Assembly (NCBI RefSeq): GCF_025118155.1
Contig: NW_026251391.1
Coordinates: 995,501-1,059,500, forward strand
Length of the DNA: 64,000 nt
DNA from: Cokeromyces recurvatus
Lineage: Eukaryota > Mucoromycota > Mucoromycetes > Mucorales > Mucoraceae
Direction of reading: 5' to 3'
Made by a program: the position numbers and the translations under genes. Positions 5,810 to 42,242 of the stretch are shown one piece after another (within the stretch, counting starts at the first letter, position 1; every line of letters begins with the position of its first letter). The notes under the pieces were generated by a model that made no database searches, had not been told where the DNA came from, and worked only from the letters and a program-made list of their open reading frames with translations.

Positions 5810-6265
5810 CGCATTATTCCCAACAACAACAACAACAACTACTACTACTACTACTACCACTTATTAATAAAAGACTTTTTTTTGTTTTTGTTGTATTTGT
5901 ATTACTTGATAGTGTTTGAGTTTGTACTACTTGTTAATAATTCAGGGCAATATAATAATAGAAGAATTCTATTATTAATAGATTTTTTATTGTCATTATT
6001 ATCATCATCATTATCATAATTAAGCTATATTTAGACAAGTTTTGTATATAAAAATACGTGTGTGCTCAACACTTGTTATTATTATAGAATTACTAATAAG
6101 AAGATATAATTATAATTATTTATATATTTATATATTAAAAAAAAGAAGAAAAAGAAAAAAAAAATTAAAAAATTCTAGACCCAAAAAAGTGAAAGTTAGA
6201 AAAAAAATAAAAGAAAAAAAGCTATTTTTATATTATTGTTCATTTTTATCAACAACGACCACTAT
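5810..6265. other. 3' UTR-like AT-rich spacer
   Basis: Contains CAA/CTA trinucleotide repeats (5821-5863) just after the stop and poly-purine runs. The ORF at 6042-6335 is Lys/Ile-rich low-complexity translation that runs into the transposon end. No gene is seen. Confidence 0.6.
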
Positions 6266-6334
6266 TACTTCAAATTCAGACAATGTTAGTTTTTTTTCTG
6301 GGCGAATCATAATTAATTTTCAGAAGTCTTGTTG
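6266..6334. repeat. Left terminal inverted repeat of the Fanzor element
   Basis: Begins TACTTCAAATTCAGACAATG and continues through GGGCGAATC and AATTAATTTTCAGA. The reverse complement is found at 9077-9148. Confidence 0.85.
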
Positions 6335-7150
6335 AGACAAAATGTTGGTCGAACTAAAATGCAACTGTAGGCTAACAGGTCAACTATTTTTTTTTTTTTA
6401 CCTCTTACATGGATGCTACTTACAAACAACCTTAAGAAGGTTTAGCTAGCGCATTATAAGAGAAGTCCATCTTTTGGTGTTGATTTAACTATACAATGGG
6501 AAACCAATTTACGACAGAGAAAATATGGGGATTATGGGAGTGAATTCTTAAAGATAGTCAGCTTCTCTAGCACTTGTACCACTAGAGCACTACACGAACT
6601 AAGAATGGAACTCAAAATTTATTTGTATATAACTTTTTACTTGGCCAACAAAGTTTCTATTGTTTAATGAAAGCGGAAGCAATTCTGCTCAATTCTGAAA
6701 AAAAAAAAGGGGGAGATCAAAATGAACAGCGTGTATAACAACCTATACATAGGAAAAACCTTGTTCTTTTTTTTTTTTCTCTTAGAGTATGATGACCTAC
6801 AATCATGTTATCTATTGTGATATATATGCTGGAATAAATGTCGTTTGTAAAGGAAAACTGTGATGAAATCAACCTAATTTAAATGACTGATCCACCTACA
6901 ATAATAAAGTGAGGCAATACAATAACATTAAAGTATGAAAAGATCCAATACAAAAGACAATAGATACTGCCCTGTAACTGAATGTAGAGATTAATGAATA
7001 ATAAAAATAAAACACTTTGGGAGGCTAGTGTGTAGACGTGCTATATTGAATTGATATATTCGAGACTTGTGAAATACCAATTAGCAAGCCAATACTTTTG
7101 TATGCCTGGTTTGTCCGCAAATCTTCTTCTTTCTTTTTATTTTAAACAAA

Positions 7151-8903
7151 ATGTGTACACCCATCTATGCTAATGTTGAGGCTTTTATACAGGCTAAGAA
7201 ACAGCACAAGTATGAAAGCGTACAAGCAAAAGCTGTTAATGATAACACAAACAAACAATTTATGAAAAAGGGTAATATAAACTATATTGTTTGATAAACC
7301 AAACTTACTCAAACTATTAAAAGGTGTCAAAAGAAAGGATACTTATAAAGAAAAGAAAGATAAAGCAAATGCAAAAAGGGCAAGAAGCTCTACTTCTTCA
7401 AGCAATCAAAACTTACCCTATAAATCTTGCAACAATATGGGTCATTCTTCAGCAAGGACTAAAGAATGCCCAAACCATAACTTTACATTGAAAGAGTTAC
7501 TAAACAGAAATCTTGGACTCAATTATCAAAGATACACTGTTTCTCTACCGCTGAAATAGTTTGTGTCCGCAACAAATCAAAATGTCTACATGCAAAATTT
7601 CCCGTAAGTGAGATTTTTTTTTTTTATCAAAAGGAGGTGAAGATATCTATTATAAAACATATAGTATTCAAACATGTCTCAGATGCAGTGCTTTCCTATG
7701 AGATACAACCAGCTATGAATGGCAACATTGCTTTTTCATTAAGTGAAGAAGCCCAAGGTAACATCCGTGCCCTCTCAAAACCATTGATTTTAGAAATTAG
7801 AAACCGATTACCTTCGTTTCCGATGACAAAAAGAAACTCTCAATAAAGCACCTTTTGGTATAATACCAGCATTAAGGCATATTCTGGTTAAATACGAAGC
7901 CTTAATTGAGGAAAACCCACAAACACAGCCTGGTTTACTAGAACAATCAGAGCAGACAAATCCACCAAATAGAAAAAGATCAAAAAAGAAGAAGGTTAAG
8001 AAGAATAAAAAGACAAGCAAAGACAATGAAAAGAAGTTCGTTCCACCCAGGCCCTTTAGTTTGTTTCCAAAACCAAGTCTTCGTTGGCGTTTTATAAAGA
8101 TCGATAGCCAAAATTTAGATGGCATATTTCCTGGGGCTTTTTTTTTTTGGAAAAACAAGATGAAGAGACTCCTTTCCAACGGATACAAAGATGTTTCTTT
8201 GTCTACTTTGATTTTTCGAAATTAAACATTAACAGGCAAATGTTAACATTGTTTACAAGAAATAAGCACACTAATTTTAAATTTGAATAGTCTTGAAGGC
8301 TTAATAGACTTGCCTCATCGAAAAGGAAAGATGCTTTTTAAATAGCATATATACAGACGGATATACGTGCAGGATATCATTCTGTAGAAAAATACAGGCA
8401 ACATTCTTATTAATGTCCCAAAAAAATACAACAAAAAAAGAAGAGGAAAGACGAAAAAAAAAAAAAAGAACACACAAGGAGAAGTTTGAGGAGGGCAACC
8501 GCCGCAAGATGCCGTTAGTTGTATTTGGCAATGGACTTAAAAACAAAAGCCAGGTAAAATTTAAAGGGCTAAAGCATGGTATATCAGAAAAGATATACAG
8601 GCAGCTGAAAATACGAGAAAAGCTTGGAGAATTGTTGCTTCTAGACATAGACGAATACAAAATATCCAAGGTAGAAAAATACATACATGTGGATATAATA
8701 AGCGTACTAATACAATATATTACACCTGTATTGTATAGACATGCAATTCCTGTCTTGAAACCAAGCTTCAAAACCTCGCATGTGGAAAGGGAGATGATGC
8801 ACATAGAATCCATCAAATATTCATCTGCAAAAGTTGCTATATTTATTGGAATCGAGATGTGATGGCTGCAAAGAACATGTTAACCATTACTACATCAATC
8901 TGA
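7151..8903 (+). pseudogene. Fanzor (eukaryotic TnpB-like RNA-guided nuclease) gene, decayed
   Basis: Fanzor proteins are TnpB/Cas12-related RuvC nucleases guided by an RNA from the element. Recognisable pieces in order: ATG at 7151 with a Lys-rich N-terminus; zinc-knuckle-like KSCNNMGHSSARTKECPNH (7287-7559 frame, first Cys of the pair apparently Tyr); 7637-7846 and 7860-8140 in another frame, ending in RPFSLFPKPSLRWRFIKID; a T11 run at 8138-8148 where the frame shifts; FSKLNINRQ near 8200; then 8413-8670 with MPLVVFGNGLKNKSQVKFKG and LLLLDIDEYKISK. An intron 8671-8738 (branch-like GTACTAATAC, acceptor TGTATAG) joins in phase to TCNSC...ICKSCYIYWNRDVMAAKNML and a stop at 8901-8903. CxxC...CxxC plus NRDVMAAKN is the TnpB/Fanzor zinc ribbon and final RuvC motif. 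At least three frame breaks and no visible DxG-type first RuvC motif argue that this copy is dead. Confidence 0.82.
8671..8738 (+). other. Intron restoring the Fanzor zinc ribbon
   Basis: GTAGAA donor, GTACTAATAC branch-like sequence at 8704-8713 and TTGTATAG acceptor. Removal joins codon 8668-8670 to 8739 in phase and converts an open but meaningless read-through (stop at 8860-8862) into a CxxC-containing zinc ribbon. The length (68 nt) matches host introns. Confidence 0.75.
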
Positions 8904-9076
8904 AGCGGAAATGATCATCCCAATGTCTTCAAAAGACAAAGCGCTATCTCGAATGTGGTTGTTACATCCCATCTCGGTGGGGTGTCGACTTGAAGATCTT
9001 ACAGGTAAAGCCAAATTTAAATTTTTACTTTGAACTTGTCTCTGATTTCCGTTTTTACATTTCCCAAAAAAGATAA

Positions 9077-9148
9077 ACAAGACGTCTGAAAATTAATTTT
9101 GATTCGCCCAAAAAAAAAAAAAAACTTACATTGTCTGAATTTGAAGTA
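9077..9148. repeat. Right terminal inverted repeat of the Fanzor element
   Basis: AACAAGACGTCTGAAAATTA through GATTCGCCC and CATTGTCTGAATTTGAAGTA; reverse complement of the left end, with A15 replacing the interrupted 8-T run. Confidence 0.85.
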
Positions 9149-9518
9149 GTCTGAATTATTATTATTTAAAAAGGCGACTCCTTTTAATTTCATGCTGGTT
9201 GGTAAGGCACGTGAGAAGCTAAGAAAAAAAAAAAAAAAAAAGTTTATATTTTTACACTTTTTGATACTATTTTTAAAAGAAAAAATAATAATAAATTGAG
9301 TTTATATTTTATTTTTATTTTTTATTAGTTTATATATAAACACATATCAAGTATCTTTTTTTCCTCTCTTCTTTTTATTTATTTATTTATTTATTTACAA
9401 GTATTATTTCACATACATACATACACACATATACATATATAGAGAGGCATTCATATATACACACACTCATACACACATTCACTTATATATATATACATAT
9501 CAATATACACTTGTAAAA
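9149..9518 (+). promoter_or_regulatory. Upstream region of the 9519 gene
   Basis: 370 bp of A/T runs, pyrimidine tract (9355-9380), ATTT repeats and a CATACA/CACACA-rich stretch (9412-9485) directly before the ATG. No exon is seen. Pyrimidine- and CA-rich sequence just before a start is typical fungal promoter/5' UTR sequence; no specific factor site can be assigned. Confidence 0.4.
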
Positions 9519-10001: not shown

Positions 10002-13000
10002 GCATTCGTTCTCTTTTTATTTCTTGTCATATCATTTAACATTAGTAACTTATCCCTCACCTTCTTCTCTTTCTTTTCTTGATTACTATTTACTATTATT
10101 ACTAATTATCGTTTTGTTTTATTCTAATAATACATTTATACTATTTATATAATACAGAATATAATGTAGAACTTTGGCTATAATTAGCCAATACTCTATT
10201 TATTTATTTTTTTTGTTATCGTTGTATATAATAATAAAAAAAAATTGATTTTGTTTTTATACATGTTTGTAGTTAGACTTTTTTTTTTCTATTTATTATT
10301 ATTAGGTATTAGTGGTACGAATGAATATCTTTTCCCTTTTTCTTGTATCTTATTTGTATTACCATACGCAAAACATATGTATATTAAAGGTACTCTTATA
10401 AAACAAATTTATCTATCTTTTTCTATCTATGGTTTGGTCTATATTTAATTTCATTAAAGGATAATAGCAAGTGCTACATTATAAATAGAATATATTTCTG
10501 TTTTAAATAGCTGAAGAAGCATGGCTTTTTTTTTCTTTTTTCTTTTTTCTTTTTTTTTTTTTTTTTTTTTCATTAAATAATAATAATCACCTAAAATTGG
10601 AGGGCTCTGCAGATCCCAATATATGAATTATAAACACCGAAGATCTGTACAAAGTTTCTCGGTAAAATCTCAAACAAATGATAATGTCACAATAGAATAA
10701 ATAAAAAGAAAAGGGAGAGAGAGAGAGAGAGTGAGTGAGAGAGAGTGAGTGAGAGAGAGTGAGAGAGAGTGAGAGAGAGTGAGAGAGGGAGGAGAGATAT
10801 TAAGTTAAAAAAAATAATAGAAATGAAATTCTTATTTTTTTATATAAATATACATGTATATTTTTTTTTAAAAAAAAATACATAAACATATAAATAAAAA
10901 AGTTTTTTTGCACGTCATAGAAACAAAAATTATACATAGTACTAAGTATTTTTAAAAAAGAAAACACGTGAAATAATATATTCAAATAGTATTAACATGT
11001 ACATTGTAGTTTAAAATCTACTGCTTGTATAGTAAATCGTAAACAATAAAAGATGTTTTGTGTGTATATTCCTGCTGTTGATTCACATGTCCTACTAATC
11101 TTTTTTTTTTTTTTTTTTGAATGACTTGACTTGAAATTCAGACGATGGTATTATAACAAAAAGAAAAAAAAAAAGCTCAGATTCAGAAAAATAGACGTTT
11201 ATATTTGAATAGATGCATCTATTTATATTGATAAACAAAAAGATTTTTGTTTCTTTTTCAATCAATCCATCTATAATCATAATCACTTTCACGCGTCTTG
11301 TGCTACATGATTTAAAAAGGAAAAAACTTTTATCAAATATGGCTGTCACTAAAAATAAAATAGTATCATCGGGATAAAAATATCGGAAATAACAACAGTT
11401 TCTGGTCGTTTTAATATATGAAGTTGAAACCGCCTTTCTTCACTACCTATTCTATTGAAATTATACGAACTAAAAGTCATTTATATTTTGAAATATATAA
11501 ATATAAATATGCATATATGAAAGGAGAAAAAAAAAGTGCCTGTGTGGCTGAAGTCTTTTTTTTTTTTTTTTTTTGTCTATTGAGATATCAAGTAATATAA
11601 AATCCTTATACAACTTATATCTTGCGTCTTCTTGTTTCTATAATCGTATTATATAACTTTAAAATAAATACTTATCTTAAAGCCTGTTGTTAAAATATTA
11701 AGGTTATCTTGTTCCTTTTGATGATTTTATTTTCTTCATAGTATTGATTTTTTGAACCAGTCAAGGTGAGGTTATTATATTACATGTCATTTTTTTTTTC
11801 TATGTCGCCGCTGTAAAAATTTTGACGGATTATTATTGTATGTCTGTGTGGGGGGGTGAGGAGGAGGAGGAAAGGGAAAAAAAGAGGTAAATCCCCCTGG
11901 TTTTATCTATTTTTAGAGGAATTCATTCAATGTGACTTTTTTTTGAGACAATTATTAATTCTTCCTTCCCAACTACTTTCTTTTAATAATAAGACATGCA
12001 TGTTATTATTTAAATAAGGGGGTTATTCTTATTTTATAACATCTATTTAATAAACTTGACTAGCCGTCTATTATTTAGGAGGAAAATAAGAAAAAATCTA
12101 TTCTATTTATAGGTTTATTATTCAAACATTTGGTATATTGTTAAAGTTAGATCAAGAAAAAAAAAAGGCCTTTGAGTAACACGATGAAAATCAAAAATAC
12201 AAATAAGCTAGGAACCAGTGTCCTCGTAGACAGGATGATAGCACCATCACTACTGACAAGTTTACTCAGCCCATATAATAAAATAGGTATCAACATCTTT
12301 TTATTAGTATAACCTGTAAATGGTTAAAGTCATCTTGCAAATAGCCAGATTTTGATAATGTAGGACGATATTTATTTATAATTTTAGACAACTTGCAATA
12401 TGAAGATGATGCAAGCGATAAAGAAGATTCAAGTTAACAATAATGTATCTATCTGCCTTTTTTTTCAATTAGAAACTGCAATACATGCCATGTTCTCTAC
12501 AAGAATATCGTCGTTAAGATCTGCTTCCATTCAAGTTTGAAAAACGTATAATTTTACCTAAAAGAAAAGGTGATCAGAGCACGTTAAATGTGTATCAGCT
12601 TTAACTATTTGCTTTTTTTTTTCTTTCATGGAATACATATATAATATTATCTACTGCAAGATTCAGTTTATTTTATTTATTTTTTGAACAGTTAAAAGCT
12701 TTGTTGAATTACAGCGCTTGATGCATTTTAGTTGCTTTGAATAAAAGTAGTCTTATGTCTTTGATTGTATCTTTGAATTATAGCGTCTTAATGGGAATAC
12801 TATTTGTAGCTATAAATACACTCTTTCTGTTAGAAAAGGACCATAGTCTATTGAAAATCTATCTTCTAGTTACTGTAGTTAATGATCAGCAGTGATTCTC
12901 TTATTATTGATTGATATTCATATTCATCAAAACTAATTAAATTTGTTTTGCAACAAGAACGCCTGAACTTTAATTTTTTTTTTTTTTCCAATTTAACATT

Positions 13001-37833: not shown

Positions 37834-38765
37834 TGGTTGAAATTTGTGCTTTTTTAAAAACTTAATAGTGTCAAAAAAAAAAAAAAAAAATAATGATGAT
37901 AATAATAAAAAAATCTTGTTGAGACCTATGCTAATATGTATATTTTTTTTTTCAAATTAGATTTAAAAAAGGCATCTTTCAATTTCTACTTAAAGTATTA
38001 AGGTAATTATGTTAACTCTGTCAATTTAGGCTTTTTTTATAGATGATGTTATACGTGCTTATATTCTTGGGAATTTGATGTTACTGGAATTATGCAATCA
38101 TCATCTTTTGTTAAGCAAGCATCAAGCCATTGGCTATCATTTTGTCTTTCGTTATTTACTGGTGACATAATCATATTTCTTATACTTAATATTTGTTGTT
38201 TTAGTTGCCAAACTTGAACAAGAACAGGGAGTGTTTTGATAAGCAAAAAGTTAAAGAAAGAGAAAAAGACAAAAGACAAGTCTGTGAAAACTTCGTGTAG
38301 TTTTTATTTAGAAGAATAATACAAAAATTGTACCAGGAAAAATTATGTAAAAGGTAAAGGGTTATTTATATGTTTTTGCAAGGTAAGTGATATTAATAGA
38401 ACTACGATTTGGATAAGCAAATATTGCTATAATAAAGCATTAGTCATACATATTTTCTCCGAATAATTCTGCCTACAATAAGATCTATTTTTATTCTTTT
38501 CTGCTTGAGCTGTCGCTGTTACTAAAAATATTAAATTATTATTTCTGGGGTAAGCGACGCGTCAATATTAATTCACAGTGAATATGTCAGCTATAGCAAT
38601 ACCAATTATTTATATGCTACTATTATTATTATCCTCTAAGATATTATTACATAACAATACTCATCTTTATAGCTATCTATATATAATATGTATGGCTTAT
38701 AAATAATTGTAATTGAATATAACAGTCATAATCCTATTGAATTATTATTATTACATAATATAATG

Positions 38766-40494
38766 TATTGTATTTTTCAGCAAATAAGAGAAAATTTCAG
38801 AAAAAATAAGAGAAAATTATTGGACAAATAAGAGAAAATTATTGAACAAATAAGAGAAAATTTTAGGTCAATTAAGAGAAAAAAAAATGGCAATTAGCAA
38901 AAAATTTACTTATACTTAAATCTCATAAGTTTTTCTCCAGGGCTAAACACTTTTCAAAGAATCTGAGAGAATGGCGAATCCAGCCCTGGCAGTCTTTCTT
39001 AGTTACTTTGGAGCAGGCATCCATTATTCTGGGTGTGAGTGTCTCACCAGTTTCGAAAGGGCTTCTTTTGACGCCATACTTCACCTTCGACCAGAATAGC
39101 TCAATTGGGTTTAGGAATGGTGAGTACGGCGGAAGATATGCACACTTATAGCCTCTGCTTTCTATTAAGTTTCTTACTGTAGCTGGCTTATGTATGGGAG
39201 CATTATCCATTACCAAGTAAAAGCCCTTCATATTATTTCGGTCAAGAACATCCATCACATTACTCAAGTAATTTAAATAGTGCTCAGTCCTAGTTCCAAC
39301 CTTAGCTGTCGTTGTAACAACCTTCCCATCTATTCTTCTCTTCTTAGCTCCCGAAACTAATATTGGCTTTCTCAAAGAGATGTCAATAATGCCGGCGCTA
39401 GAGATGGCACCAAGAATGGTTATTGTGGTGCCTTTTGAAGCAGGGACAGTTGTTTTAGCAGGTTCTCCTATCTTGGACCAGCCACGAGTGCGTGTCATGT
39501 GTAAATTGAACCCTGCTTCATCCAAAAAAACGCAATTATTCTCAAAGTCCATATTTTTATCAGCTAGCCATTGAAGGATGGTCTCCTTTCTCTTCTTAAG
39601 AGTTTCTTCCGAGTTTCTAGCAGATGAAATTTTCTCCAACTTCTTCATAGATAGTGCACAGCTGGTTCTAAGATGTCTGTATACTGCGGATGGGCTCACG
39701 GAGAGACTTGGAAATTCTTTGAGCAACAACTCGTGTATTCCAGCTACAGTTGCAGTTGAACACTCATCAACAATGTCGGTAATAAACTTTGTGTGTTTTT
39801 CAGTAAGCTCAGAGACAGTTCCCATTTTGCGCCCTCTTTTTTTCTGTTGAGGTATTTCCCCTGTTTTCTGCCATTGCGATTTGAAACGGTAAGCTGATTT
39901 CTCATTTATTCCTGTTTTTAAAGCTGCATCTTTTACAGGAACCTGTTCAATTAACAGGGAAATAAGCTTGTTGATATCTTGCTGAGTGTACACACGTCTA
40001 GCATTGCTAGCGGCGTCTTTTTTTTCGGCCAGATCTCTGAGAGGCTTCTCTTCTTTCAAATCGCTCTCACTACCCTGTACATCAGCTTCATTTTCCTCCT
40101 TATCCGAGCTATTGCTGGCCTCATCACCCTCGTACCCTTCCTTCAGCTCCATCGTCGCATCTTCATCTAACTCCATGGCTGATGCAGTGATGTTGTACTC
40201 CCACTTCTTTCTCATCATTGACATTACGCTGACAATGATTTTAGGTACAGCTTCAATGTCATCGTCGCGTAGAGAAATTTCGTTCATATCAAAGTCAATA
40301 TCCATTTTTTGTTAATAATAGTGAGAAAAGTGCTTTCTACTAATTGCCATTTTTTTTTTCTCTTAATTTTTCTTGGACTTTCTCTTAATTGACCTAAAAT
40401 TTTCTCTTATTTGTTCAATAATTTTCTCTTATTTGTCCAATAATTTTCTCTTATTTTTTCTGAAATTTTCTCTTATTTGCTGAAAAATACAATA
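38766..40494 (-). mobile_element. Tc1/mariner-class DD34E transposon with repeated TIRs
   Basis: TA target duplications at 38766-38767 and 40493-40494. Inverted ends start TTGTATTTTTCAGCAAATAA on both sides: left 38768-38896, right 40340-40492. Each arm carries five or six copies of a TAAGAGAAA motif spaced 20-27 bp. The arms are nearly identical; the right has one extra repeat unit. Total 1,725 bp with an intact transposase gene. The insertion splits LTR copy 2, so it is the youngest event in the cluster. Confidence 0.92.
38923..40305 (-). CDS. DD34E transposase
   Basis: Cut-and-paste transposase, 460 residues, single open frame. N-terminus (1-105) is unusually long and acidic (DVQGSESDLKEEKP and neighbours). 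Then a helix-turn-helix pair: INKLISLLIEQVPVKDAALK...TGINEKSAYRFKSQW and a second near SVSPSAVYRHLRTS, with a basic linker KKRGRKMG. Catalytic residues: first Asp in NNCVFLDEAGFNLHMTRTRG, second Asp in GFYLVMDNAPIHK, Glu in YLPPYSPFLNPIELFWSKVK, with 34 residues between second Asp and Glu, hence DD34E. All three are present and there is no stop, so the protein could be functional. The 'LDEaGFN...TR..GWS..G' block groups it with Tc1-like transposases common in fungi. Start at 40305 follows TIR sequence by 35 bp. Confidence 0.93.
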   Translation of the reverse strand: MDIDFDMNEISLRDDDIEAVPKIIVSVMSMMRKKWEYNITASAMELDEDATMELKEGYEGDEASNSSDKEENEADVQGSESDLKEEKPLRDLAEKKDAASNARRVYTQQDINKLISLLIEQVPVKDAALKTGINEKSAYRFKSQWQKTGEIPQQKKRGRKMGTVSELTEKHTKFITDIVDECSTATVAGIHELLLKEFPSLSVSPSAVYRHLRTSCALSMKKLEKISSARNSEETLKKRKETILQWLADKNMDFENNCVFLDEAGFNLHMTRTRGWSKIGEPAKTTVPASKGTTITILGAISSAGIIDISLRKPILVSGAKKRRIDGKVVTTTAKVGTRTEHYLNYLSNVMDVLDRNNMKGFYLVMDNAPIHKPATVRNLIESRGYKCAYLPPYSPFLNPIELFWSKVKYGVKRSPFETGETLTPRIMDACSKVTKKDCQGWIRHSLRFFEKCLALEKNL

Positions 40495-42242
40495 TATAAT
40501 TATTTTTAATGCTCGAATACTCAAACAATGACTATTATCAAAACTGAGAGTAGAATGAATATTATGCTGTGAAACGCGATATATTAGTTTTATTTGAATA
40601 ACCTTTTTATTATGTAATAAATGATGGTTTATTTCTATTAACTTGATTATAAAGGCTACTACAATTATAACAGGGAGGACTTTAGCGCCGAACTTCTCTA
40701 CATTAGAAGGAATACTTAGCTCTTTTCCTCGTGATATTCTTGTAATATATCGATGTGGTCGGTCAGCAGTAATTAGTTGCATAGTTAACCCGGAATGAAT
40801 AATTCCAAATGCTTTCATTCCTATAAAATCTTTATTTTTTAAGATTAAATGATCTAACATATCTTTTAGAACCTTAGGTAATTTGGCAGATCCTTCTGTC
40901 ATTAATTTGGTTCCCTTTTGTTCATAACGAATTCCCACTTCGTCTGCTCCGTACTCTAGACTCTCTTCATGATCTGAAGTAGTATCTCTAATGAGAAAGT
41001 CACATTTATACCCAATTTGTTTTCTTTCAATTGGTGATACTGATCCAATAACTCTATTTGCATTTTTTCTGTTTGCGCTTGAAATACTCATGGCTTCACT
41101 TCTATGGTGAAAAATAGAGGTTAAATCTATACGTGTTTAACAATCGCTTCTATAACTTGCCTTACTACTTCAAGTGAAGGTACATCATCAAAAATACGAT
41201 CGATAAACGACCAGATATGAATATTGTACCACAGTTCTTTCTTTGAAGCGCTTAATGATCCACTTTCATATTCTCTTAATAATGCATGTACTGCAAACTT
41301 TAACCAATCAAAATCATGGTGTTTGCGTATATTGTATTCAGTTTCCCAGTGTTGTCTTTTAACAAGACTTTGGCGGATTTTTTCGGTAGTGGTACAGTTG
41401 AATGAATTCATATAATCGCGTAATTTACTTGGAATTGGTATTGTTGTGCTTATCACGTTTTCTTTCTTTATCTCCTCTAACTCTTTTTCAGTAAAAATAT
41501 TATGTTTCAAATATGTTTGATCATCAACGTCTATGATAAAAGAGTTCGATGGATGATCTACTAGTAACTTTTTACTAAAATTATACAAAGCGTCTTCTAC
41601 TATCTTTCCAGTTGAAAGCATCCACTTGTATGCATTATTCAATTTTGAGTAACTTTTCTCAAATTCAGGATGGCTTGCGGGTTCTGAAAATATATTTTAA
41701 TAACAGATAAAGCGATCTAATATTTATTTACCATGATGCATCTTTAAATGTAAACCAAGCTCTTCTATAGTTTCATAATGGGTAGTGCAACTCAAGCAAG
41801 CCTTAACAAATTTCACATCATTCTAAATATAAAAGAGAAGATTAGCTAACAAATTAAATAAGTTAAATATACGTTATACTTACTCTGTTTTTGGAAAACG
41901 CCTTCGATATATATTTCTTACTAGGAATGTGACATAATACAAAATTACTTAAAGAAGAGTAGTAGAATATGTAAGATTTATTACTTACTATTTCTTATTA
42001 TAGAATTTGGATGTACAGTTTGGATATGAAAGCCCTAATTCATAAATGGTAAGCAAGTTAATGAGAAAAAAAAAAGGATAAAACAATACCTTCAGTATCA
42101 ATATAATGTCGTCTTAAGCTTCTCATTTCTGTAAATTGAAGAAAACATACGTGACATTCATACTGTAAACAAAAATATTCAATAGTTTCCTTCATTTTTA
42201 TTGAAAGAAACTCTCTAAAAAAATTGTTCCATCTCACAAAAG

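What the first reader, a model, noticed from the sequence alone, without database searches (positions are those of the whole stretch)
6266..9148. A Fanzor-bearing TIR transposon with TA target sites
Seen directly: about 68-bp inverted repeats (TACTTCAAATTCAGACAATG at the outer edge) 2.88 kb apart, TA on both sides, and no transposase inside; the only coding remains are a TnpB/Fanzor-type nuclease. Known: Fanzors occur as passengers in several eukaryotic DNA-transposon classes. Inference: this is a non-autonomous Tc1/mariner-type family that kept an RNA-guided nuclease as its sole cargo. The sequence between the RuvC-III stop (8903) and the right TIR (9077) is where a guide (omega-like) RNA would be expected.
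Basis: partly seen in the sequence, partly recalled or inferred. Interest (0 to 1): 0.85.

Follow-up and report, generated by a model that had tools for sequence, protein, structure and literature searches.

The report
Fanzor transposon with possibly spliced guide
This is a broken copy of a fungal jumping element that carries a CRISPR-like, RNA-guided DNA cutter; in its relatives the guide-RNA scaffold stops at what looks like a splice site, which suggests (not yet shown with RNA) that splicing attaches the guide.

Summary
Inverted repeats (6266-6333 / 9076-9148) with TA at both edges bracket a decayed Fanzor1 gene. The genome, probably Cokeromyces recurvatus (Mucorales), holds 109 matches to the TIR core (reversed control 0). 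Of the 100 printed, 18 lie within 1 kb of a Fanzor TNB hit (chance 0.5) and none within 5 kb of a printed DDE_3 hit. Fanzor-only TIR elements are known (SPu-1, PUl-4), so this is a new family of a known kind. This copy is dead: the RuvC-I stretch is missing and 8901-8903 is a premature stop.

New: relatives carry a covarying two-hairpin RNA of 47-52 nt at the right end (93% of cells paired; slid controls 32-46%), about the scaffold length reported for Parasitella PpFz1. Probes that left the next two bases free found GT directly behind it in 52 of 53 matches, with splice-donor-like variation (GTAAGT, GTATGC, GTACGT, GTGAGT). The transposon edge lies 110-225 nt further on. I propose that splicing joins scaffold to flanking guide. 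The donor is well supported; acceptor and guide function are inference, and no RNA data were available. A TAM-like AWTA marks left flanks (11 of 16) but not right ones (1 of 18).

The parts
6264..6267 (+). ATTA at the left edge: TA target base pairs preceded by AT; fits the AWTA left-flank motif of the family
   Evidence: sequence; family counts, test (the window copy itself was not in that count)
6268..6333 (+). left terminal inverted repeat (short-ended version, starts CTTCAAATTCAGAC)
   Evidence: pairs with 9076-9146; family copies
7100..8903 (+). decayed Fanzor1 gene in several frames; pieces at 7100-7249, 7308-7589, 7619-8287, 8308-8403, 8485-8673, 8739-8903; stretches that siblings have are missing near 7590-7617 and 8404-8465 (the second includes RuvC-I)
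   Evidence: tblastn of sibling ORFs; window coordinate = REF + 4265; L010, L011, L012, L023 have the second stretch, L009 does not
8739..8903 (+). TNB zinc-ribbon end of Fanzor, closed by a premature in-frame stop at 8901-8903
   Evidence: PF07282 E 3e-5; searches show the C-terminal motif continuing in relatives
8904..8993 (+). remaining C-terminal codons of the family's Fanzor, next in-frame stop 8991-8993
   Evidence: sequence; alignment
8957..9004 (+). conserved hairpin RNA, proposed omega-RNA scaffold end, closing in CTTACAG
   Evidence: A2: 90.7% of cells paired, 6 pairs with double changes, slid controls 30-54%; fold -15.2 kcal/mol, z -1.65
9005..9010 (+). GTAAAG: 5' splice-site-like sequence directly after the scaffold
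   Evidence: GT at 52 of 53 matches found with these two bases left free; host introns use similar donors
9005..9146 (+). proposed intron or spacer between scaffold and right edge (142 nt here, 110-225 nt in 18 measured ends)
   Evidence: intron status inferred
9076..9146 (+). right terminal inverted repeat; read outward it holds a branch-point-like stretch (degenerate here) and GAAG/TAG
9147..9148 (.). TA at the right edge (with the next G gives TAG)

Best explanation
The stretch 6266-9148 is a dead copy of a non-autonomous TIR transposon family in a Mucorales fungus. The family's passenger is a Fanzor1 RNA-guided nuclease with its omega-RNA scaffold at the right end. SHOWN: the TIR family, its link to Fanzor, a covarying structured RNA just before or after the Fanzor stop, a nearly invariant GT directly after that RNA, and a left-flank-only AWTA motif. 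INFERRED: (1) the scaffold is about 50 nt and ends at the GT; (2) the GT is a spliceosomal donor; (3) splicing removes the 110-225 nt spacer and most of the right TIR, using an AG within the last bases of the element, so that the scaffold is joined to the flanking host sequence as guide; (4) the nuclease then cuts empty sites of the form AWTA + right flank, which lets the element be copied back by repair, as proposed for TnpB; (5) movement itself relies on a transposase supplied from elsewhere. Splicing would let an element keep the long TIR its transposase needs without placing that TIR between scaffold and guide. Steps 1-2 are likely, step 3 is about even, and steps 4-5 rest on analogy.
For: TIR and copies. 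TIR cores near TNB hits: 18 of 100 printed cores within 1 kb where chance gives about 0.5; 0 of 100 within 5 kb of a printed DDE_3 hit. Fanzor identity: PF07282; best solved relative SpuFz1 8gkh, E 7.5e-4 for an L043 query, GtFz1 9cer, E 0.0025, for family C. Structured RNA: A1 has 21 rows (19 distinct), 93.0% of cells paired, 27 double-change cells and covariation score 0.46, each reached by 0 of 500 shuffles; slid controls 32-46%. The window type, A2, has 12 rows, 90.7% paired, 0 of 500. Donor: probes with the two bases left free matched 53 places at 4 or fewer mismatches of 28; 52 have GT (one pair, L049/L050, is a duplicate). In the 50 sites (30 distinct): +3 is A or G in 50, +5 is G in 32, the base before GT varies in 5. 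Seven loci taken by TNB alone and absent from the printed pattern list (L055, L057, L059, L060, L061, L063, L070) all have GT. Fanzor's own introns and 11 host-gene introns of the window have similar donors. PMC11423790 (sections 5 and 11 read) reports that Parasitella PpFz1 has a 75-nt omega-RNA with two stem loops and names C50-C58 as guide; the scaffolds in A1 are 47-52 nt from ATC to the tail end. Left-flank AWTA in 11 of 16 left versus 1 of 18 right ends, p 1.8e-4.
Against: There is no RNA evidence of any kind. No genomic trace of a spliced joint was found: 2 pattern hits against 3 for the reversed control, neither like the joint. One relic tail has AT instead of GT (L044:1374 minus). The acceptor is weak in this family: GTAG is present in 12 of 22 right ends versus 4 of 19 left ends, p 0.053; any TAG/CAG near the edge 14 versus 7, p 0.12; several right ends offer only AAG, which none of the 10 host acceptors I read uses. 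In long-ended copies 8-12 element bases would remain between joint and host flank. The branch-point-like CTAAC is no commoner at right ends (15 of 22) than at left ends (16 of 19), so TIR constraint explains it equally well. Two of the five covariation measures are not beyond shuffles in A1 (pairs with double change 38 of 500, further pair types 93 of 500) nor in A2 (30 and 116 of 500), and A2 is small. AWTA was chosen after seeing the data. The PpFz1 RNA sequence itself was not seen.
Confidence: 0.45

Rival explanations
1. Long unspliced omega-RNA: the RNA runs from the hairpins through the spacer and TIR into the flank, with the spacer looped out, for instance closed by pairing of scaffold UUACAG with the terminal CUGUAA of the element.
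For: Published omega-RNAs differ in length and SpuFz1's runs through its IR (PMC10432273 section 7; PMC11423790 section 5). UUACAG and the CTG-TA end are complementary in many long-ended copies.
Against: The spacer varies from 110 to 225 nt. It does not explain GT in 52 of 53 tails with GTR-type variation. Family A' (two copies) ends in ATACAG-TA and lacks the pairing partner. Short-ended copies lack the CTG.
Confidence: 0.22
2. The GT is a real splice donor, but of an ordinary 3'-terminal mRNA intron (or an exon trap onto downstream host exons) with no role in guide formation.
For: Fanzor genes here have ordinary introns with similar donors. In family C the frame stays open up to the donor (read by eye).
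Against: The donor sits exactly where the scaffold ends, in families with different ends and different stops; in the window type, the L043 type and A' a stop precedes it (read), and an intron in the 3' untranslated part would be an odd thing to conserve.
Confidence: 0.2
3. Fixed guide: the bases after the scaffold (GTAAG...) are themselves the guide and target one conserved site.
For: They follow the scaffold directly, where PpFz1's guide bases lie (PMC11423790 section 11).
Against: The first bases are nearly the same in unrelated families while later ones differ by family; no target was sought.
Confidence: 0.07
4. No functional RNA: all conserved features are relics or chance in a dead repeat family.
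For: The window copy is broken, and the siblings whose frames I read are interrupted too.
Against: Covariation with shuffled and slid controls and a nearly invariant GT among copies that have otherwise drifted.
Confidence: 0.06

Closest known systems
SPu-1 elements of Spizellomyces punctatus (SpuFz1); PMC3627910 section 5 and PMC10432273 section 7 read, further passages seen
   Same: Fanzor1 as sole gene, TIRs, TA at the edges, many copies, no transposase found, conserved bases outside the left IR (CA, giving TAM CATA) comparable to AWTA here, guide RNA at the right end
   Different: SPu-1 has 30-33 bp IRs that form part of the omega-RNA with the guide right behind them; here the TIRs are about 70-85 bp, and scaffold and edge are 110-225 nt apart with a splice-donor-like sequence between
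PUl-4 and other Fanzor elements in Tc/mariner (PMC3627910 section 7 read)
   Same: Fanzor-only element with TIRs and TA target sites
   Different: PUl-4 shares TIRs with elements of confirmed mariner type; no such partner was found here
PpFz1 of Parasitella parasitica (PMC11423790, sections 5 and 11 and passages read)
   Same: Mucorales Fanzor1; two-stem-loop scaffold of similar length; AT-containing TAM (ATN)
   Different: no chain named PpFz1 turned up in my sequence searches of solved structures; 'intron' occurs 0 times in the paper's text; its RNA sequence is in a supplement not available here
IStrons (PMC4227781, search listing and start of abstract only)
   Same: a transposon of the TnpB world in which splicing and the element's end meet (link to TnpB recalled)
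   Different: bacterial group I self-splicing of the whole element; here a spliceosomal-type donor inside a eukaryotic element

Membership tests
Fanzor1 | C-terminal TNB zinc ribbon (PF07282) | tested here: met
   window 8739-8903 E 3e-5, 24.5 bits, slightly under the 26.3 cut-off; 60 of 70 printed genome hits over it, L043 at 40.9 bits
Fanzor1 | RuvC-I with DPG/DPN motif | tested here: inconclusive
   present in relatives (DPN in L011 and L010; DPG in L043, L049, L071); this stretch is missing from the window copy
Fanzor1 | omega-RNA at the right end | tested here: inconclusive
   structured covarying RNA found; expression not testable here
Fanzor1 | RNA-guided DNA cleavage | not testable with these tools
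   needs biochemistry
Tc1/mariner | DDE transposase of the superfamily in the element or in a partner with the same TIR | tested here: not met
   no transposase hit in the 16 ORFs scanned; 0 of 100 printed TIR cores within 5 kb of printed DDE_3 hits; 9 of 109 cores and some of the 184 DDE_3 hits were not printed
Tc1/mariner | TA target site duplication on both sides | tested here: inconclusive
   window copy: yes; family: TA at 13 of 16 left but 6 of 18 right edges; no clean empty site found
Tc1/mariner | TIRs beginning CAGT next to TA (recalled convention) | tested here: met
   most sibling ends examined; the window copy itself lacks these outer bases
Fanzor-only TIR elements (SPu-1 kind) | TIR-bounded multi-copy element with Fanzor as the only gene found | tested here: met
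   Fanzor sequence in 32 of 40 loci L009-L048 (loci chosen by similarity to this element); other genes looked for only by scanning 16 ORFs with Pfam
IStron | group I intron in the element | tested here: inconclusive
   no Rfam group I hit in 8700-9250 (only a sub-threshold snoRNA match); the rest of the element was not scanned with Rfam

The most novel reading that the evidence does not exclude
Mucorales Fanzor transposons build their guide RNA by spliceosomal splicing: the scaffold is an exon ending in UUACAG, the right TIR is intronic, and the guide is host flanking sequence joined on as the next exon. This would be a guide RNA assembled by the host spliceosome, frees the transposon end from the guide RNA, and has arisen or been kept in several Fanzor families with different ends.
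Probability: 0.4. Interest if true: 0.92.

Novelty: new variant of a known kind. Interest (0 to 1): 0.62.

Why it matters
In SPu-1, as in TnpB elements, scaffold and guide lie side by side across the element's edge, so the edge serves both transposase and guide RNA. If splicing makes the join, it answers how Fanzors could move between transposons with quite different ends, and it gives a natural case of a guide RNA put together by the spliceosome, testable with one RNA-seq data set. It also gives a predicted TAM (AWTA) and scaffold for a large, little-studied Fanzor group.

Tried and rejected
Partner transposase: the Tc1-like element in the same window (38750-40510, 462-aa ORF, 155-nt TIR arms) has different TIRs. 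The two 1.6-kb TIR pairs on C21 and C43, of typical Tc1 size (recalled), proved to be truncated Fanzor copies in duplicated flanks.

Empty sites: flanks of L011, L019, L030, L033 lie in repeats, but 10-13 bp of unmatched filler separates repeat and TIR, so they do not show the pre-insertion site. TA duplication for the family therefore stays unproven.

Spliced retrocopies: none. Rfam: nothing for the RNA. PpFz1 structure not matched by sequence. Literature: searches (20 of 116 papers listed; 18 of 19; 14 of 14; 1 of 1) listed no paper on spliced omega-RNA by title or abstract start; the library is open-access only, and Jiang et al. 2023 was not held. Not run: a structure prediction, because the window copy lacks RuvC-I. 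A first count of donors (50 of 50) used sites partly collected with patterns that contain GT; it was therefore repeated with the two bases left free, which gave 52 of 53 at 4 or fewer mismatches and turned up the AT exception. Looser matches (5-7 mismatches) include real tails with GT (L063, L070, probably L037) and many chance matches, and were not counted; L034 (GT) was read by eye.

Full report
WHAT IS THERE. Window 6266-9148 carries arms of 32 nt (97%) and 44 nt (93%) at its two ends and TA at both edges. The window lies at G000:C45:995501-1059500 of a 28.05-Mb, 64-contig genome. A Fanzor from Cokeromyces recurvatus in the protein collection lies on a contig of exactly the length of our C1 (2,298,495, protein P0007), so the host is very probably that Mucorales fungus (taxonomy).

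FAMILY. The TIR core has 58+51 matches with up to 3 mismatches, and the reversed control has 0+0 (100 places printed). Of the 100 printed, 18 lie within 1 kb and 24 within 3 kb of a TNB (PF07282) hit, where chance would give about 0.5 and 1.5; none lies within 5 kb of a printed DDE_3 hit (one search printed 70 TNB hits, 60 of them over the cut-off; one search found 184 DDE_3 hits, of which the roughly 150 printed were used). Of the 40 loci L009-L048, 32 contain recognisable Fanzor sequence between or beside the TIRs (L021, L022, L029, L032, L038, L040, L045, L046 do not); these loci were picked by similarity to this element, so the fraction is not a census. The closest siblings are L009, L010, L011, L012 and L023.

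EDGES. CAGT keeps its distance to TTCAAA across subfamilies. The window copy matches the family only from TAC inward at both ends, so it is a short-ended copy bounded by the inner TA. Left and right outer bases differ somewhat: TTTTTACAC is commoner at the left, TATTTCTAC at the right.

THE NUCLEASE. Pieces of Fanzor lie at 7100-8903 in several frames. Siblings show that two stretches are missing here; the second, present in L010, L011, L012 and L023 but not in L009, contains the RuvC-I aspartate region. The stop at 8901-8903 is premature: in relatives, and in SpuFz1 itself, the motif after the zinc ribbon continues. This copy cannot encode a working nuclease. Predicted relatives in Mucor flavus (P0001-P0003) and Parasitella (P0006) are 690-720 aa and reach both ends. 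The best solved relative by sequence is SpuFz1 (E 7.5e-4; weaker); family C finds GtFz1 (E 0.0025).

THE RNA. Right ends of 21 copies were aligned. After, or overlapping, the last codons comes a conserved block. In 21 sequences of the two-hairpin type (A1), 93.0% of cells form standard pairs and 27 cells have changes on both sides; no shuffle of 500 reaches either value, and slid controls give 32-46%. Two cruder measures are not beyond shuffles (pairs with a double change 38 of 500, further pair types 93 of 500). For example the first hairpin alternates between C-G and U-A at its middle pair, and the second between C-G, U-A, G-C and A-U. The window belongs to a second type with one long hairpin, 8957-9004 (A2, 12 sequences), weaker but consistent (90.7%, 0 of 500; slid 30-54%). 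Both types run into (T)TTACAG.

THE DONOR. Directly after that block stands GT. A first list had 50 of 50, but part of it came from patterns that contain GT. A repeat with eight tail bases, three free bases and twenty spacer bases as probes, over all loci from L009 on and the window, gave 53 matches at 4 or fewer mismatches: 52 have GT (L050 duplicates L049), and one relic tail without Fanzor, L044:1374 minus, has AT. Two of the 21 aligned right ends lack the block (L009, L014). In the list, position +3 is A or G in 50 of 50, +5 is G in 32 of 50, and positions +4 to +8 vary by family: GTAAGA, GTAAAG, GTAAGT, GTATGC, GTACGT, GTGAGT and others; the base before GT varies in 5 of 50. Seven loci taken only because of a TNB hit (L055, L057, L059, L060, L061, L063, L070) all have GT. 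Ordinary introns of the same Fanzor genes have GTAAGT, GTAAGC and GTATAA. Eleven introns of an XPB-like and an ABC-transporter gene in this window, placed by reading frame and recalled protein motifs, have GTAATA, GTACCT, GTAAGT, GTAAAA, GTAGGT, GTATGT and GTAAAT, and the ten acceptors I could read end in TAG or CAG. The tail therefore looks like a working 5' splice site in this fungus.

WHY IT MATTERS FOR THE GUIDE. Parasitella PpFz1, also from Mucorales, has a 75-nt omega-RNA with two stem loops, and C50-C58 are named as guide (PMC11423790 sections 5, 11). The A1 scaffolds are 47-52 nt from ATC to the tail end. So the guide should begin at about the GT, yet the element's edge is 110-225 nt away (18 ends; distances assume the long-end register except in the window copy). 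Splicing from this donor to an AG near the edge would join scaffold and flank. AGs are present there: CCTAG or CCCAG in family B, CCTAG in C, ATACAG exactly at the edge in A', and GTAG in 12 of 22 right ends of family A. But the last figure is only marginally above left ends (4 of 19, p 0.053), and other right ends offer only AAG. I regard the donor as well supported and the acceptor as open. In family C an extra intron seems to divide the scaffold, with GGCG/CGCC and GGTG/CACC on its two sides in L061 and L070; this was read by eye and not tested.

LEFT FLANK. Outside the left edge, the positions before and including TA read A (14 of 16), A/T (16 of 16), T (15 of 16), A (14 of 16); on the right the same positions read A 3 of 18, A/T 11 of 18, T 12 of 18, A 9 of 18 (16 of 19 left and 18 of 22 right ends used, the rest dropped for lacking a CAGT-like edge). 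AWTA: 11 of 16 versus 1 of 18, motif chosen after inspection. The window copy, one of the dropped, has ATTA. A one-sided motif is what a TAM would leave and is not what a symmetric TA target would; SpuFz1's CATA with conserved CA outside the left IR is the precedent (PMC10432273 section 7).

COMPARISON. As an element this belongs with Fanzor-only TIR elements such as SPu-1 and PUl-4 (PMC3627910 sections 5, 7). Mucor, Rhizopus and Phycomyces are already on that paper's list of Fanzor hosts. New here, as far as searches of an open-access library show by titles and abstract starts, is the splice-donor-like end of the scaffold. No RNA evidence was available.

Noticed in passing
window 38750-40510: Tc1-like element with 155-nt TIR arms (89%) and a 462-aa DDE_3 ORF (38926-40311, minus); ten printed genome hits including this one share its score and eight of them its frame length, suggesting a recently active family with different TIRs.
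   Followed up: partly
L035 (1042-2936) and L041 (968-5152): Two Fanzor 3' halves face outward toward opposite TIRs, so both TIRs act as right ends, each with its own scaffold and donor.
   Followed up: partly
L032, L038, L046, L054: Ghost-like loci: the scaffold tail and donor are kept while the sequence upstream of the tail is unrelated.
   Followed up: no
L060, L061, L063, L070: Family C seems to have a second intron inside the scaffold, with apparent stem partners on its two sides.
   Followed up: no
window 11130-11151: A lone TIR-like match (4 mismatches of 22) without partner nearby.
   Followed up: no
L011, L019, L030, L033 flanks: Host repeats are joined to the TIR through 10-13 bp of unmatched bases; the cause is unknown.
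   Followed up: partly
L014, L011, L025, L041 N-terminal parts: A CCHC-like zinc-knuckle motif precedes the Fanzor core in this group (by eye; Pfam hit below its cut-off for L041).
   Followed up: no
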